Part shown: positions 21,817 to 29,057 of the stretch, in pieces
Position numbering within the stretch: the first letter of the stretch is position 1
Layout of the letters: each line of letters opens with the position of its first letter
Origin: an uncultured Gammaproteobacteria bacterium
GTDB lineage: Bacteria > Pseudomonadota > Gammaproteobacteria > Pseudomonadales > Pseudohongiellaceae
NCBI GenBank assembly: GCA_903862645.1
Contig: CAIOZF010000173.1
Location: 1 to 64,000 of the forward strand
Direction: 5' to 3'
Length of the DNA: 64,000 bases
Notes under the pieces: model-generated
The model's database searches: none
Seen by the model: the letters and a program-made list of their open reading frames with translations, nothing else
Told to the model about the DNA's origin: nothing
Made by a program: the position numbers and the translations under genes

Positions 21817-21822
21817 CCCCGG

Positions 21823-21877
21823 AAATTTGGGGTCAGAGTAAAAATACAGGCTGTATTTTTACTCTGACCCCAAATTT
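21823..21877. repeat. perfect 27-bp inverted repeat, likely bidirectional terminator / MITE-like element
   Basis: The arms 21823-21849 and 21851-21877 are exact reverse complements with a single G between them. The core reads GGGGTCAGAGTAAAAATAC. It fills the space between the argH stop and the stop of the DegS-like protease, and T and A tracts on both sides suit termination in both directions. Similar GGGGTCAGAGTAAAAAT palindromes are scattered in many gammaproteobacteria, often near REP-associated (IS200-like) transposases. This last point is recollection, not a search result. Confidence 0.85.
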
Positions 21878-22960
21878 TTAGCGCTCTGCTGTTCCCTGCA
21901 GTTCAATCTCGTACGTCTGCGTCGCGCTATCACGCCGCGTCGTCACCGTGACCACATCCCCCGCGCGATGATTCTCCAGCGCATTGAGCAGATCATCTTC
22001 GTTAGCGATGCTCGCCCCCTCGATTGACGTGATCACATCGCCCAGCAAAACGCCCTGACTGGTCTCCCGCAGACCCCGCATGCCGGCGCGCTGCGAGCCA
22101 CCGCCTTCGATCACGTCCATCACCACCACGCCCTCAATCTGCGCGTTCTGCCGATAGTAATCCGCATACTGCGCGGGCAGCACAGAGATGCCCATCGTGG
22201 GCGTCTGCACCTGACCATAAGTAATCAGCTCCGGCACGATCTTCTTCACCGTGTTCGCCGGAATCGCAAAACCGATGCCGGAACTGACGCCGGTCGGACT
22301 GTAGATCGCCGTATTCACGCCCACTAACTGCCCCAGTGAATTGAGCAACGGGCCTCCGGAATTACCAGGATTGATCGCCGCGTCGGTCTGAATCACATCC
22401 CGAATCTTGCGGCGGCTGACCGAATCGATCTCGCGTCCCAGCGCACTCACCACCCCCACCGTCAGCGTCGTATCCAGCCCGAACGGATTGCCGATCGCGA
22501 TCACCTTGCGCCCCACCTCCAGCAACGACGAATCGCCCACCTGGATCGGCGTCAGCTTCTCCTGTGGCGCATCGATACGCAGCACGGCCAGATCCTTGTC
22601 CGGCTCATAACCCACCACCTCGGCGTCATAAGCATTGCCATCCTGCAGCGTTACCGTCAGCCGCGATGCCTGCTGGATCACATGAAAATTCGTGACCACA
22701 TAGCCCTCTTTGCTCCACACAAAACCCGACCCACTGCCCTGCGGCACCTCTTGCGGGTTCAGCGAATAGTAAGAACGCTGCACCAGCCGCGAGTTGGTGA
22801 TGTACACCACCGACGGACTGGCCTGCTTGAACACCTCGATGTTGTTCGCCTCGTCATCGGTCTTGAAGGTGGCGTAATCCTGCTGCGCAATCGCGCTGCC
22901 GTTGGCCAGCTGCAGTCCCAGAAGAGCGACGAAGGGAAGCCAATATTGGCGTTTGTTCAT
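21878..22960 (-). CDS. DegS/AlgW-type periplasmic serine protease
   Basis: A 360-residue HtrA-family protease with an N-terminal signal or anchor (residues 1-25, ending GSAIAQ), a trypsin-like domain and one PDZ domain. The triad is His in VVTNFHVI, Asp in EPDKDLAVLRI and Ser in INPGNSGGPLL. One PDZ (residues ~255-355) places it with DegS/AlgW rather than two-PDZ DegP/MucD. DegS/AlgW cleave the anti-sigma factor RseA/MucA in envelope stress. No algU-mucAB genes are in the window. It converges with argH. Confidence 0.88.
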   Translation of the reverse strand: MNKRQYWLPFVALLGLQLANGSAIAQQDYATFKTDDEANNIEVFKQASPSVVYITNSRLVQRSYYSLNPQEVPQGSGSGFVWSKEGYVVTNFHVIQQASRLTVTLQDGNAYDAEVVGYEPDKDLAVLRIDAPQEKLTPIQVGDSSLLEVGRKVIAIGNPFGLDTTLTVGVVSALGREIDSVSRRKIRDVIQTDAAINPGNSGGPLLNSLGQLVGVNTAIYSPTGVSSGIGFAIPANTVKKIVPELITYGQVQTPTMGISVLPAQYADYYRQNAQIEGVVVMDVIEGGGSQRAGMRGLRETSQGVLLGDVITSIEGASIANEDDLLNALENHRAGDVVTVTTRRDSATQTYEIELQGTAER

Positions 22961-23157: not shown

Positions 23158-23460
23158 ATGCGAATAATAGCTCTCTCAACACTCAAGGAATTCTGGGAGA
23201 ACAACCCGTCATGCGATGACGCTATGGACCCTCTGCTCTCATGGTACAGGCGAACGTTACAGGCAGACTGGGCCTCACCTGCGCTGCTCAAGCAGGACTT
23301 TCGCAACGCAAGCGTACTGCGGGACGGGCGAGTGGTATTCAATATCGCGGGCAACAAGTATCGCGTGGTGGTGTGGATCAATTATGCGTATCGAGTCGTG
23401 TACATCGGCTTTGTAGGAACGCATGAGCAATATGACCGCATCGATGTTCAAACGATTTGA
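23158..23460 (+). CDS. higB: HigB-type mRNA interferase toxin
   Basis: A 100-residue RelE-superfamily toxin. The core GRVVFNIAGNKYRVVVWINY followed by YIGFVGTHEQYDRID is the HigB signature. Positively charged and aromatic residues suit ribosome-dependent mRNA cleavage. AGGA sits 7 bases before the ATG. It is the first gene of a toxin-first pair, the order typical of higBA, and the antitoxin begins 17 bases downstream. Confidence 0.9.
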   Translation: MRIIALSTLKEFWENNPSCDDAMDPLLSWYRRTLQADWASPALLKQDFRNASVLRDGRVVFNIAGNKYRVVVWINYAYRVVYIGFVGTHEQYDRIDVQTI

Positions 23461-23477
23461 AACAGGAGAGAACCAAA

Positions 23478-23849
23478 GTGAGCGTCAAGGTAATCAAGAC
23501 TGACGCGGAATATCGCGCCGCACTTAAAGGCATCGACAGCCTGATGACCGCAGCAGCCGACACCCCCGAGGGCGAGATGCTGGACCTGATGGTCACTCTG
23601 GTAGAAGCCTATGAACGCCAAAACTACCCTCTGGATCTTCCGGACGCAGTAGCGGCTATCCGCTTTGAGATGGAGCAAAAAGGGCTGACCGTAAAAGACC
23701 TCGAGCCGATGATAGGAAGAACGAACCGTGTCTACGAAGTGCTCAACTACAAACGCTCTCTGACGACTCGCATGATCTGGCGCCTGCACAAAGAACTGGG
23801 CATTCCTGCCGAGTCGCTAATCAAACCGGCGGAACAGGTGCGCCCGTAA
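23478..23849 (+). CDS. higA: HigA-type antitoxin
   Basis: A 123-residue protein. The C-terminal half is a helix-turn-helix of the HigA type: EMEQKGLTVKDLEPMIG, then VYEVLNYKRSLTTRMIWRLHKELGIP. It neutralises HigB and probably represses the pair. The GTG at 23478 is chosen because AGGAGAG precedes it by 7 bases. An in-frame TTG at 23457 overlaps the toxin stop and has no ribosome site. Confidence 0.9.
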   Translation: MSVKVIKTDAEYRAALKGIDSLMTAAADTPEGEMLDLMVTLVEAYERQNYPLDLPDAVAAIRFEMEQKGLTVKDLEPMIGRTNRVYEVLNYKRSLTTRMIWRLHKELGIPAESLIKPAEQVRP

Positions 23850-23898: not shown

Positions 23899-24891
23899 TC
23901 ATCCACTTAGTTCGGCATCGTCCCAGCGGCTCTGGATGGCAAGAATCTCTGGCAGGATTTCGTTAAATAAATCCACCAGTTCCGGGTCGAAGTGCGCGCC
24001 GGAGCCAGCTTCGAGTTGCGCCAATATCTTCGCCAGCGGCCACGGCTCCTTGTACCGCCGTCTCATGCTCAACGCATCGAACACATCGACTACCGCGACG
24101 ATGCGTGCCGACTGCGGTATGTCCTTGCCCTTCAAACCCGCCGGGTAGCCGCTGCCATCCCACTTTTCGTGATGACACAGCGAAATTTCGGCGGCCAGCT
24201 TGAAGACGGGCGCATCGCTCTTGCTCAAGATGTCGAAGCCCACTTGCGGATGAGTGCGCATGACGATCCACTCCTGCTCATTCAGTGGCCCGGGCTTGCG
24301 CAGAATGGCCTGCGGCACACCGAGCTTGCCGGTGTCGTGCATCGGTGCGGCCAGTTCCAGGCGCGCACTGCTGTCGTCGTCCCAGCCGCAGGCCACGGCC
24401 AGGGCGCGCGAATAGGCCGCCATGCGCCAGATGTGGCCGCCAGTATCGGTGTCGTTGTAATGTCCGGCGTGGCCCAGCATCATGATCGCTTCCCGGTAGC
24501 TTTGCTCCAGAGCGGCAACCTGCACGCGCGCCAGATGGGCGCTCACTCTGGCCCGGACAATCTGCGGCAGAATAGGCTTGACGATGTAGTCCACGCCGCC
24601 AGCTTCAAAGCCGGCCGCCTCGTGTTCGGGATCGCTGTAACCGGTCACAAAGACGACCTGCAGGCAGCCCGTCGAATCGAGCTGCCTGATCTGTCGGCAC
24701 AACTCGTAGCCATCGATGTCTGGCAAGCCGATGTCCAGCAACGCCAGCGAGGGCTGGTGCTTGACGACAGCGCGCCGCGCCTCAGCCCCATTGCGGGCAG
24801 TCACCAGCACATATCCGTCCGCTAAAGTACGTTCCATAATGGCCAGGTTGGTTGGCTCGTCGTCCACGATCAATATTGTCTTGCGGCTCAT
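23899..24891 (-). CDS. response regulator with HD-GYP phosphodiesterase domain
   Basis: A 330-residue RpfG-like protein. The receiver domain (residues 1-120) has TILIVDDEPTNLA, the phospho-acceptor Asp in LALLDIGLPDIDGYEL, and Lys in DYIVKPI. The HD-GYP domain (residues ~135-320) has MHDTGKLGVP (HD), HPQVGFDIL, and HHEKWDGSGYPAGLKGKDIP (GYP). Such proteins hydrolyse c-di-GMP on phosphorylation. It is the last gene of a minus-strand operon, starting 3 bases after the REC-REC-Hpt frame, and is the likely output of the kinase at 26407-28074. Confidence 0.93.
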   Translation of the reverse strand: MSRKTILIVDDEPTNLAIMERTLADGYVLVTARNGAEARRAVVKHQPSLALLDIGLPDIDGYELCRQIRQLDSTGCLQVVFVTGYSDPEHEAAGFEAGGVDYIVKPILPQIVRARVSAHLARVQVAALEQSYREAIMMLGHAGHYNDTDTGGHIWRMAAYSRALAVACGWDDDSSARLELAAPMHDTGKLGVPQAILRKPGPLNEQEWIVMRTHPQVGFDILSKSDAPVFKLAAEISLCHHEKWDGSGYPAGLKGKDIPQSARIVAVVDVFDALSMRRRYKEPWPLAKILAQLEAGSGAHFDPELVDLFNEILPEILAIQSRWDDAELSG

Positions 24892-24894
24892 GGT

Positions 24895-26403
24895 TTAGCT
24901 CCCTAAATCTATGGCGTAATCGATCGCAAGCTTTTGCGTGTGGGTTTTTGCCGCTCGAAAATCGTAGTCCAGTACACTGGCCAATATGGCTGTCAGCGCT
25001 GGCGCCGGCAACTGCTGCTCCAGCATCGTCATCGCGCGCTTTATCAGCACCGGATTGTCAGAGTCCAGCGCAAGCAGAAATTGGCTCAATTGTTTCTGCA
25101 ACGCGATCCGCGCAGTCGCAGACAACGGCGGCGCTGCCACTCGGGTTGTATTGACGGCCTCTTTGTCTTGTTCGATAGGGGGCGCATACCGATCGATCTC
25201 TGCCATCACCGCCGCCAGCGCCTTGCTTAAATCGGCCAGAGCCGGCCCGGGGTCGTCCTGCGTGTGCAGCAACGCTTCCAACGCCTGCGCAGCGCAGCGC
25301 GTGTCAAGCAAGGCCAGGTTGGCCGCTACTCCCGAAATCTGGTGCGCCAGAGCGGCTGCCCCGGGCCGGTCGCCCGCGATCAGGTGGGTGCCAAGCAGCG
25401 CAATGGCGTCGCCGTAACTTACGGCAAAGCGACGCAGATAAGTCTGGTAGGTCGGAAGGTCTAGCCAGTTTCCCAGTGCGTGCTCGGTATCCATGACACC
25501 TGTTGCCAGGGATGCAACAGCGAGCGCGCCTGAGGGCATTGACACAGCGTTGAGCGAAGCGGTCGCTGGCTTGGCTGGAAGCAACTTGGAGGGGCGACGC
25601 AAACGCTGGATCAGGGCGACAGTCAGGGGCACATCAAAGGGCTTACGGATAAACTCCGTCATGCCAACGGCCATGGCTGCCTGCTGCTGCGACTTGAGGA
25701 CCCCAGCGCTCAGGCCCACGATGGGAAGGTCGTCAAACTGGGGCAGGCGGCGCAAACGGCGCGTTGCCTCTGCGCCGTCGAGCACCGGCATTTGCACGTC
25801 CATCAGCACCAGGTCCACTTCAAATGGGTGCTCCAAGAGCCAGTCGATCGCCTCCTGGCCGTCTTCGGCCAGGCTCACCGTAGCGCCCAGCCCCTCCAGA
25901 ATACGCTTCGCCACTTCACGGTTGATGTCGCTGTCCTCCACCACCAACAAGCGCACCCCCTCCAACGGGGGGCCGCCGCCCAGCAGATCCGAGGGCGCGC
26001 TGCCCTGATAGTTGATTCGATGCCGCTGCGCCTGACGCACGGCGTTGTAGAGGGCCGATTCAGTCACGGGCTTGGCCAGAAAGGCATCGACCAAATCTGC
26101 GTCGACCTGGCTGGCCAGACTGGCAAGCGGCTGAGCGGTAGCCATAATCACGATCGGGCAGGCGCCGTGGGCGACGCTCGCACGGATCGAGCGCGCCAAG
26201 GTCAGCCCGTCCATGCCCGGCATCTTCCAGTCAATCACGACCACATCAGGGTGCCTGGCGCTCTTCTTCTCCTGCAGCCACGCCAGGGCGCCGGCGCTGG
26301 AATCGATCTTGTGGACCTGCCAGCCCAGTTGTTGCGCGACCCTGCCAATGGCCTCCAATGCGATTTCACTGTCGTCGACGATGAGGATCTTGAGCGCGAC
26401 CAG
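24895..26403 (-). CDS. REC-REC-Hpt half of a hybrid kinase cut off by an amber codon
   Basis: The frame encodes a first receiver starting LKILIVDDSEIALE, with phospho-acceptor in VVVIDWKMPGMDG, a second receiver (VRLLVVEDSDINREVAK, LVLMDVQMPVLDG), and a C-terminal Hpt domain with the phospho-His in ALAHQISGVAANL. It has no ATG or GTG at its beginning. The first possible starts are a CTG at 26403, immediately after the stop of the kinase, or a TTG at 26358 that would remove the receiver's acidic pocket. The frame is the same as the kinase frame, so the two were evidently one gene (HK-REC-REC-Hpt, about 1060 residues) split by one TAG at 26407-26409. Expression would need readthrough, reinitiation or a CTG start. 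Confidence 0.75.
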   Translation of the reverse strand: MVALKILIVDDSEIALEAIGRVAQQLGWQVHKIDSSAGALAWLQEKKSARHPDVVVIDWKMPGMDGLTLARSIRASVAHGACPIVIMATAQPLASLASQVDADLVDAFLAKPVTESALYNAVRQAQRHRINYQGSAPSDLLGGGPPLEGVRLLVVEDSDINREVAKRILEGLGATVSLAEDGQEAIDWLLEHPFEVDLVLMDVQMPVLDGAEATRRLRRLPQFDDLPIVGLSAGVLKSQQQAAMAVGMTEFIRKPFDVPLTVALIQRLRRPSKLLPAKPATASLNAVSMPSGALAVASLATGVMDTEHALGNWLDLPTYQTYLRRFAVSYGDAIALLGTHLIAGDRPGAAALAHQISGVAANLALLDTRCAAQALEALLHTQDDPGPALADLSKALAAVMAEIDRYAPPIEQDKEAVNTTRVAAPPLSATARIALQKQLSQFLLALDSDNPVLIKRAMTMLEQQLPAPALTAILASVLDYDFRAAKTHTQKLAIDYAIDLGS

Positions 26404-26406
26404 GTT

Positions 26407-28074
26407 CTAGGACGAATCCTGCGCCGCAGCGACTCGTTTCAGCGGCAGGGTAAACCAGAACTCACTGCCCTGACCGGGCGCGCTGATCAGGCCGATCTCA
26501 CCGCCCATCAACTTCACCGTCTCGCTAGATATCGTCAGCCCCAGGCCGGTGCCCCCAAAGCGGCGGGTGGTGGACAAGTCGGCCTGGACGAAGGCCTCAA
26601 AGACAGCGCTTTGCTGCTCGGGCGGGATGCCGATACCGGTGTCGCGGAAACTGAAGCGCAACCAATCCGACCCGTCTGCTCGGCTCAGCGACTCGATGCC
26701 CACCACAATGGAACCGGCCTGCGTGAACTTGGCGGCGTTGCTCGCGAGGTTGATGAGTACCGCCTGCAAGCGCGTCGCGTCGCCAACAATGCCGCGCACT
26801 CCTGCTGGCAGGGGCGCGATGGTCACCTCAATGTCCTTTCCCCCGATGGCCGTTCCCAGAGTCGTGGCCACGTTGTCGACGATCGTCCACAGATCGAAGG
26901 GGGCCTGCTCGATCTTCAGTTGGCCGGCTTCAATCTTTGCCATATCCAGGATGTCGCTGATGCTGTCCAGCAACATGCTCCCCGAGCTTCTGATCTTGCG
27001 CACCATCTCGCGCGCGACTCCATCCAGATTGGCCTGCTCCAGTAGATAGGCCAGGCCGAGAATAGCGTTGAGCGGCGAGCGGATCTCGTGACTCATGTTA
27101 GCCAGGAACATGCTCTTTGCTTGGTTGGCGGCTTCGGCCTGCGCGCGTGCCTCCAACTCTAAGGCATGGCTATTCTTCTGTGCCGTAACGTCCCGGTGGG
27201 TTCCTGACATCAGCAGAGGATTGCCATCGGCCGTTCGGCTCGTCACCCGGCTGCTGCTATGCAGCCACACCCAGTGCCCGTCCCTGTGGCGCAGGCGCGC
27301 GTCGCATTCATAGTGATCCGACTGACCGGCGAGGTGCTCCTTCAACAGCCTTTCCGCACCCTCCCGGTCTTCCGGGTGAGTGCGATTGATCCAGGTCTCC
27401 ATGGAGGCTGGCATAAATTCTGCCAGCCCGAACCCGATCAACTTTGCACTGCGCTCGTCCATCGAGAGCTCGCCGGTGAGCAAGTTCCATTCCCAAGTGC
27501 CGACATTCGCGCCTTCGAGGACGTCGGACAGGCGCCTGCGCTCCTCGGCGAGGATCGCCGCAACGTCCTCCAAAGTCACGCGCACCAGCTCCTCTTCCAC
27601 GCAATCGGCAAGGTCGCGCAGCATGGTAATGTCCCTGGCGCCGAATGCCCGCAGCTGCGTGTCGATGACGCACAGCGTGCCGACTCGCTCTCCGCCCGGC
27701 GCATGCAACGGCGTCCCAGCATAGAAGCGTATCTTGGGACTGCCGGTTACTAACGGATTGTCAGCGAAGCGCGGATCCTCAGTGGCATCGGGGACAATCA
27801 GGATGGCGTCGTTCAGGATGGCGTGGCCGCAGAAGGAGATGTCGCGTGATGTCTCGGTCGCGTCCAATCCTTGGCACGACTTGAACCACTGCCGCTCCTC
27901 ATCGACCAGAGACACCAAGGCAATTGGAACGTCGAAATGTCGCTGTGCGACTCGGGTGATGCGGTCAAAGCGCGCTTCGGCCGGCGTATCGAGCACCTTG
28001 AGGGCATACAACGCCGCCAGGCGTTCCGCTTCGTTTGTAGGGATGTCGGGGGAATGCCGGAATTTTACCGTCAT
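26407..28074 (-). CDS. GAF-PAS sensor histidine kinase (N-terminal half of a hybrid kinase)
   Basis: A 555-residue protein with an N-terminal GAF domain (LKVLDTPAEARFDRITRVAQ ... GTLCVIDTQ, residues 1-175), a PAS domain with PAC (GTWEWNLLTGELSMDERS, residues ~185-305), a HisKA domain with the phospho-His at about residue 329 (MSHEIRSPLNAILGL), and a complete HATPase_c domain (NLASNAAKF, FRDTGIGIPPEQ, GTGLGLTIS). No transmembrane helix is seen, so it is a cytosolic sensor. It ends RVAAAQDSS-TAG, and the receiver reading frame continues without a shift after that single stop. It is the first gene of an operon with the REC-REC-Hpt frame and the HD-GYP regulator. Confidence 0.9.
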   Translation of the reverse strand: MTVKFRHSPDIPTNEAERLAALYALKVLDTPAEARFDRITRVAQRHFDVPIALVSLVDEERQWFKSCQGLDATETSRDISFCGHAILNDAILIVPDATEDPRFADNPLVTGSPKIRFYAGTPLHAPGGERVGTLCVIDTQLRAFGARDITMLRDLADCVEEELVRVTLEDVAAILAEERRRLSDVLEGANVGTWEWNLLTGELSMDERSAKLIGFGLAEFMPASMETWINRTHPEDREGAERLLKEHLAGQSDHYECDARLRHRDGHWVWLHSSSRVTSRTADGNPLLMSGTHRDVTAQKNSHALELEARAQAEAANQAKSMFLANMSHEIRSPLNAILGLAYLLEQANLDGVAREMVRKIRSSGSMLLDSISDILDMAKIEAGQLKIEQAPFDLWTIVDNVATTLGTAIGGKDIEVTIAPLPAGVRGIVGDATRLQAVLINLASNAAKFTQAGSIVVGIESLSRADGSDWLRFSFRDTGIGIPPEQQSAVFEAFVQADLSTTRRFGGTGLGLTISSETVKLMGGEIGLISAPGQGSEFWFTLPLKRVAAAQDSS

Positions 28075-28692: not shown

Positions 28693-29057
28693 TCGCACCA
28701 AAGCCTGCGCGAGCCGGACTTCGTCATCGATACTCCCAGAATGTGATCCCTGCCGTCGGCATTCTCGATTACATGTATACCGAGCTGGAGCTGCCCTTTA
28801 CCGAAGACAAATAGGTTCGGGCGTTCCACTACTACTCCCAAGTCAGTGTGCCCGCCTACAACTATGGCTGGCAACCGCTGTACTGGCTGGAAGCGCCACG
28901 CGCGGTCGAGCCAGGCACCGTGGTGAATGTCTCTGGGGCCTTCGATAATTCCCTGTCCAACCCCTTCAACCCCAACGTCAGGGAAGCGGTGGGGTGGGGC
29001 TTCAACAGCGGCGAGGAAATTTTTACCGGGTATTTGACGTATTCGATTGAGCGGTAA
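28693..29057 (+). pseudogene. decayed copper type II ascorbate-dependent monooxygenase-like gene
   Basis: Two frames join to give a recognisable protein. The first frame reads SHQSLREPDFVIDTP and hits TGA at 28744. The next frame continues VIPAVGILDYMYTELELPFT, meets TAG at 28812 (at the position of a family Trp in EDRW), and runs on as VRAFHYYSQVSVPAYNYGWQ to a C-terminal AFDNSLSNPFNPNVREAVGW segment. Intact relatives have some 200 or more residues between the LPFTEDRWVRA block and the SVPxYNxxWQ block, so there is also a large internal deletion. The gene is dead by one frameshift, one nonsense codon and a deletion. Family assignment is from remembered motifs. Confidence 0.6.

What the first reader, a model, noticed from the sequence alone, without database searches (positions are those of the whole stretch)
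26401..26409. One in-frame amber codon splits a hybrid histidine kinase into kinase and REC-REC-Hpt halves
The kinase ends AAAQDSS then TAG, and the very next codons in the same frame read N-L-V-A-L-K-I-L-I-V-D-D, a perfect receiver start. There is no ATG, GTG or ribosome site for the second half. The downstream 1.5 kb stays open and has intact phospho-acceptor sites in both receivers and the Hpt, with no other damage. Possible explanations are a very recent nonsense mutation, phase-variable or suppressor-dependent readthrough, or a CTG/reinitiation start that makes the two halves from one message. The next gene is an HD-GYP phosphodiesterase, so the break may uncouple or tune a c-di-GMP output.
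Basis: seen in the sequence. Interest (0 to 1): 0.75.

Follow-up and report, generated by a model that had tools for sequence, protein, structure and literature searches.

The report
Hybrid sensor kinase cut by nonsense mutation
A bacterial sensor-kinase gene carries one fresh stop codon between its kinase half and its signal-relay half; comparison with relatives points to an ordinary, recent loss-of-function mutation in an expendable gene that is also breaking down, differently, in a sister species.

Summary
On the minus strand a TAG (26409-26407) ends a GAF-PAS-HisKA-HATPase kinase, and the same frame then stays open for 503 codons of REC-REC-Hpt with intact phospho-sites and no ATG, GTG or TTG before the first receiver's acid pocket. 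Relatives settle most of it. All 80 relatives fetched from named genomes are fused through this junction. The closest one (same genus, G009) reads Ser (TCG) where the window has TAG, so a single base change probably made the stop. G009's copy is damaged elsewhere: PAS domain missing, first receiver's motif changed, GAG to TAG after the Hpt. The gene lies in a small island (HigB-type toxin, REC-HD-GYP, kinase) with low synonymous divergence (dS 0.09-0.19; neighbours 0.37-0.53) and raised dN/dS (kinase 0.4-0.5; sampled median 0.08), which fits a recently exchanged, weakly selected accessory module. TAG looks like an ordinary stop here: RF1 is intact, no tRNA found reads TAG, and TAG terminators look normal. 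Other genes in this genome also carry nonsense codons. Best reading: a recent nonsense mutation, not a regulated split. Leaky readthrough, weak reinitiation or a base error in the draft assembly are not excluded. Interest is low.

The parts
26407..26409 (-). premature TAG codon between kinase and first receiver; aligns with TCG (Ser) in G009 and CCG (Pro) in L031
26407..28074 (-). ORF of the kinase half, 555 aa: GAF (33-160), PAS_3 (203-293), HisKA (319-384), HATPase_c (431-546)
24895..26406 (-). open frame after the stop, 503 codons: REC (26388-26035), REC (25947-25624), Hpt (25440-25201), conserved tail; no usual start codon that keeps receiver 1 whole
23899..24891 (-). REC-HD-GYP gene, own Shine-Dalgarno-like AGGGAG 7 nt before its ATG, 3 nt after the kinase gene's natural TAA; 90% identical in G009
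23158..23460 (+). HigB-type toxin gene of the same low-divergence island
23457..23849 (+). HigA-like antitoxin partner (inferred from position; no Pfam hit)

Best explanation
This is a hybrid sensor kinase (GAF-PAS-HisKA-HATPase-REC-REC-Hpt) that normally works as one polypeptide and probably passes phosphate through its receivers and Hpt to the adjacent REC-HD-GYP phosphodiesterase. A single base change in the linker (inferred from the closest relative: Ser codon TCG to TAG) created a nonsense codon. Translation should now end after the kinase, leaving a 555-aa kinase without its relay; the relay half is not translated, or only at trace level (inferred). The HD-GYP gene keeps its own ribosome-binding site and can still be made, but without its usual phosphate source (inferred). 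The lesion is recent and sits in an accessory island under weak selection; the sister species is losing the same gene by other mutations.
For: All 80 named-genome relatives are fused at this junction (loci). G009 (85% identical) and L031 (63%) are intact at the junction, and the TAG aligns with TCG in G009. G009 has independent damage: PAS deleted, receiver 1 MPGMDG changed to VSGTEG, and GAG to TAG after the Hpt. The island higB-higA-HD-GYP-HK has dS 0.09-0.19 and dN/dS 0.17-0.49; its neighbours argH, degQ and the 29262 gene have dS 0.37-0.53 and dN/dS 0.035-0.054; the median of 39 sampled orthologues was dN/dS 0.077. No kinase orthologue was found in 12 of 13 sister genomes. TAG is the expected stop: 65% of possible nonsense changes in this gene give TAG. 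RF1 (prfA) is intact. No tRNA with anticodon CTA or TTA was found. TAG terminators show normal spacing to the next stop and are mostly kept between orthologues. Other genes in this genome also carry nonsense codons, including PilR with TAG plus TAA.
Against: The relay half shows no sign of decay after the stop: on the window's branch 24 synonymous and 20 nonsynonymous changes, against 12 and 18 before the stop, and no second stop where about 3.4 would be expected over the whole branch under neutrality (P about 0.03). That fits a very recent mutation, but equally a half that is still made. The genome is a draft (254 contigs), so a base error cannot be ruled out.
Confidence: 0.79

Rival explanations
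1. Assembly or consensus error, or a minor strain allele fixed in the draft sequence: the real gene is intact.
For: The window lies in a 254-contig draft genome. A single substitution explains the stop. Several otherwise intact genes of this genome carry lone nonsense codons (PilR, an AMP-ligase, a TonB receptor, a secreted beta-propeller), and no true frameshift turned up in 127 ORF comparisons, a number that includes shadow frames: the pattern that substitution errors would give.
Against: Short-read consensus is usually accurate at the base level (general knowledge). Gene remnants in this genome (window 28700-29054; TonB fragments on C80 and C122) show real decay. G009, an independent draft, has its own lesions in the same gene.
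Confidence: 0.12
2. The stop is leaky or bypassed: near-cognate readthrough, or reinitiation at the CTG two codons on, makes some full-length or separate relay protein, so the circuit is tuned rather than lost.
For: No decay after the stop. Precedent: Shigella flexneri diguanylate cyclase pseudogenes with premature stops still yield downstream or full-length products (PMC11327459).
Against: No matching tRNA anticodon found, RF1 intact. No ribosome-binding site at a useful distance and no ATG, GTG or TTG near the stop. The stop is not conserved in G009. In the Shigella cases a Met codon lies near the stop; here there is none.
Confidence: 0.07
3. TAG is partly a sense codon in this lineage (amber suppression), so that the protein is made whole.
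For: At least six in-frame TAG codons in otherwise intact genes of this genome, against two TAA and no TGA in this non-exhaustive set. The tRNA set is incomplete (Tyr, Ile and some others not found), so a suppressor tRNA could be missing from the draft.
Against: PilR is also broken by TAA. The TAG share matches the mutational expectation. RF1 intact. 69 genes end in TAG with normal downstream spacing, and TAG terminators are mostly kept between the species. The replaced residues differ (Ser here, Gln in PilR and the ligase).
Confidence: 0.02

Closest known systems
Hybrid histidine kinases of the HisKA-HATPase-REC-REC-Hpt type in Burkholderiales and relatives (e.g. L031, L032)
   Same: Same domain order; in L031 and L032 followed by a REC gene that aligns with the window's REC-HD-GYP gene
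   Different: The window copy has a stop between HATPase and receiver 1
Nonsense-disrupted signalling pseudogenes, such as the diguanylate cyclase genes of Shigella flexneri (PMC11327459)
   Same: c-di-GMP-linked signalling gene split by a premature stop, downstream domain otherwise intact
   Different: In Shigella a Met codon lies near the stop and downstream products were detected; here there is no such start and no protein data

Membership tests
Hybrid histidine kinase with REC-REC-Hpt | HisKA and HATPase_c followed by receiver and Hpt domains with phospho-acceptor residues | tested here: met
   Pfam hits and residues
Hybrid histidine kinase with REC-REC-Hpt | One continuous reading frame | tested here: not met
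   TAG at 26409-26407; 80 of 80 relatives continuous
Nonsense pseudogene | Intact orthologues with a sense codon at the position | tested here: met
   G009 TCG, L031 CCG
Nonsense pseudogene | Relaxed selection | tested here: inconclusive
   dN/dS 0.41 before and 0.46-0.49 after the stop against a sampled median of 0.077, but no extra relaxation after the stop on the window's branch
Amber suppression or recoding | tRNA with CUA anticodon | tested here: inconclusive
   None in 36 tRNA matches, but the draft lacks some expected tRNAs
Amber suppression or recoding | Loss or weakening of RF1, or avoidance of TAG as terminator | tested here: not met
   prfA 540 bits, no stops inside; 69 TAG-terminated genes, normal spacing
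Programmed split with own start for the second half | Start codon and ribosome-binding site at the junction, conserved in relatives | tested here: not met
   No ATG/GTG/TTG before 26358; relatives fused

The most novel reading that the evidence does not exclude
The stop is kept as a leaky or reinitiating junction, so that one message gives a stand-alone kinase and a small amount of relay protein, and this tunes the HD-GYP output.
Probability: 0.05. Interest if true: 0.55.

Novelty: new member of a known kind. Interest (0 to 1): 0.15.

Why it matters
As a single case it matters little: it is one more signalling gene lost by a nonsense codon. Slightly more interesting is the setting, a small toxin-antitoxin, HD-GYP and sensor-kinase island that looks recently exchanged between two species and whose kinase is eroding independently in both. 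It also warns that an in-frame stop with an intact downstream half is not by itself evidence for readthrough.

Tried and rejected
Amber recoding was considered seriously after a second interrupted gene (PilR) was found. An earlier count said PilR had two TAG codons; the codon check showed TAG plus TAA, which weakened the idea, and the terminator test gave no support. Codon-potential scans of 843 kb gave many apparent splits that are gene boundaries or shadow frames. Most internal stops in the orthologue comparisons are antisense shadow frames; an apparent frameshift near window 11600 lies before the gene's start and is not real. The promoter scan gave no same-strand promoter-like site at the junction. 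No structure was predicted, because the domains are plain from sequence.

Full report
What is there. On the minus strand the window encodes a 555-aa protein with GAF, PAS, HisKA and HATPase_c domains (28074-26407) that ends in TAG at 26409-26407. The same frame then stays open for 503 codons, giving two receiver domains, an Hpt and a conserved tail, down to TAA at 24897-24895. The catalytic and phospho-acceptor residues are present on both sides. No ATG, GTG or TTG precedes the first receiver's acid pocket; the first such codon is TTG at 26358, and the CTG two codons after the stop has only a weak AGGA 13 nt upstream (read). A REC-HD-GYP gene follows at 24891-23899 with its own AGGGAG.

Relatives. 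The 80 best relatives of the relay half in named genomes are all fused to a HATPase domain in one frame; this set was chosen by the relay half, so it says that fusion is the rule, not that split forms never occur. The nearest relative, G009 of the same genus, is 85% identical and reads DPSSQVAGIKILIVDD where the window reads DSS*NLVALKILIVDD; the TAG aligns without gaps with TCG. L031, a Burkholderiales draft genome at 63% identity, is also intact there. The stop therefore arose on the window's own branch, by one base change if the ancestor had TCG (inferred from one close relative).

The sister copy is also damaged. In G009 the PAS domain (window residues 168-310) is absent, receiver 1's MPGMDG reads VSGTEG, and a GAG codon after the Hpt has become TAG. 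In the relay half the G009 branch has 43 nonsynonymous and 18 synonymous changes, close to neutral, against 20 and 24 on the window's branch (rough parsimony with a distant outgroup). The window's relay half was thus under some constraint until recently, which suits a young stop, or one that does not abolish expression. Under neutrality for the whole branch about 3.4 further nonsense changes would be expected in the relay half; none is seen.

The island. Between the window's genome and G009, higB, higA, HD-GYP and kinase have dS 0.09-0.19 and dN/dS 0.17-0.49. The genes on either side (argH, degQ, and the 29262-30215 gene, of which only 70 codons are covered) have dS 0.37-0.53 and dN/dS 0.035-0.054. 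In the sampled orthologues the median dS was about 0.97 and the median dN/dS 0.077 (39 genes). Both genomes have the block in the same place: two overlapping G009 contigs, C141 and C315, cover it. No other of the 13 sister genomes has a kinase orthologue or an HD-GYP match above 44% identity. The simplest reading is a module exchanged by recombination after the species split and under weak selection; that is an inference from divergence.

Is TAG read as sense here? RF1 is intact. Among 36 tRNA matches none has anticodon CTA or TTA, although some expected tRNAs, such as Tyr, are not in the draft. The genome does carry other nonsense codons in otherwise intact genes: PilR with TAG and TAA, an AMP-binding ligase with TAG where two sisters have CAG, a TonB receptor with two TAG, and a secreted beta-propeller protein with TAG. 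Three sister genomes had no stop inside their AMP-binding and TonB domains. TAG predominates, but 65% of possible nonsense changes in this gene give TAG; one PilR stop is TAA; 69 genes end in TAG with ordinary spacing to the next stop, and TAG terminators are mostly kept between the species. Recoding is therefore unlikely. A raised load of pseudogenes, or of consensus errors, in this draft explains the set.

Mechanism and verdict. Most likely the ribosome stops at the TAG, releasing a kinase without its relay; the relay half is lost or made only in traces, and the HD-GYP protein is made from its own site without its usual phosphate source. The stop and the fused form in relatives are shown; the consequences are inferred. 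Precedent for partial function after such stops exists in Shigella diguanylate cyclase pseudogenes (PMC11327459), so leaky expression deserves a simple blot, but nothing in the sequence favours it. The finding is real and ordinary.

Noticed in passing
window 28700-29054 (+): C-terminal remnant of a larger gene (sisters have versions in open frames of about 560-600 aa, about 80% identical) with an in-frame TAG at 28812; the stretch had no match in the G009 contig covering this block.
   Followed up: partly
L151 2384-3802 (own genome C146:18383-19801): PilR, the type IV pilus regulator, is interrupted by TAG (Gln in G009) and TAA (Glu in G009), while pilS upstream is open.
   Followed up: partly
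L160 2467-4362 (own genome C165): AMP-binding ligase with a TAG where two sister genomes have CAG; intact in the sisters checked.
   Followed up: partly
L258 (own genome C65:7233 and 7497): TonB-dependent receptor with two in-frame TAG codons, otherwise open.
   Followed up: no
L165 about 5020 (-) (own genome C235): Secreted beta-propeller protein with a TAG some 60 codons after its start.
   Followed up: no
window 21820-21885: Short palindromic element between argH and degQ, about 58 bases, with many copies across G009 contigs, often at contig ends: a REP-like repeat.
   Followed up: no
own genome C52 (L150 366-512): Two directly adjacent tRNA genes (Asp GTC and an unusual low-scoring Lys TTT), possibly on a phage or plasmid contig.
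   Followed up: no
L218-L237 (G001): G001, placed in the same genus, has G+C 0.41 in a 400-kb sample against 0.565 for the window's genome and 0.58 for G009.
   Followed up: no
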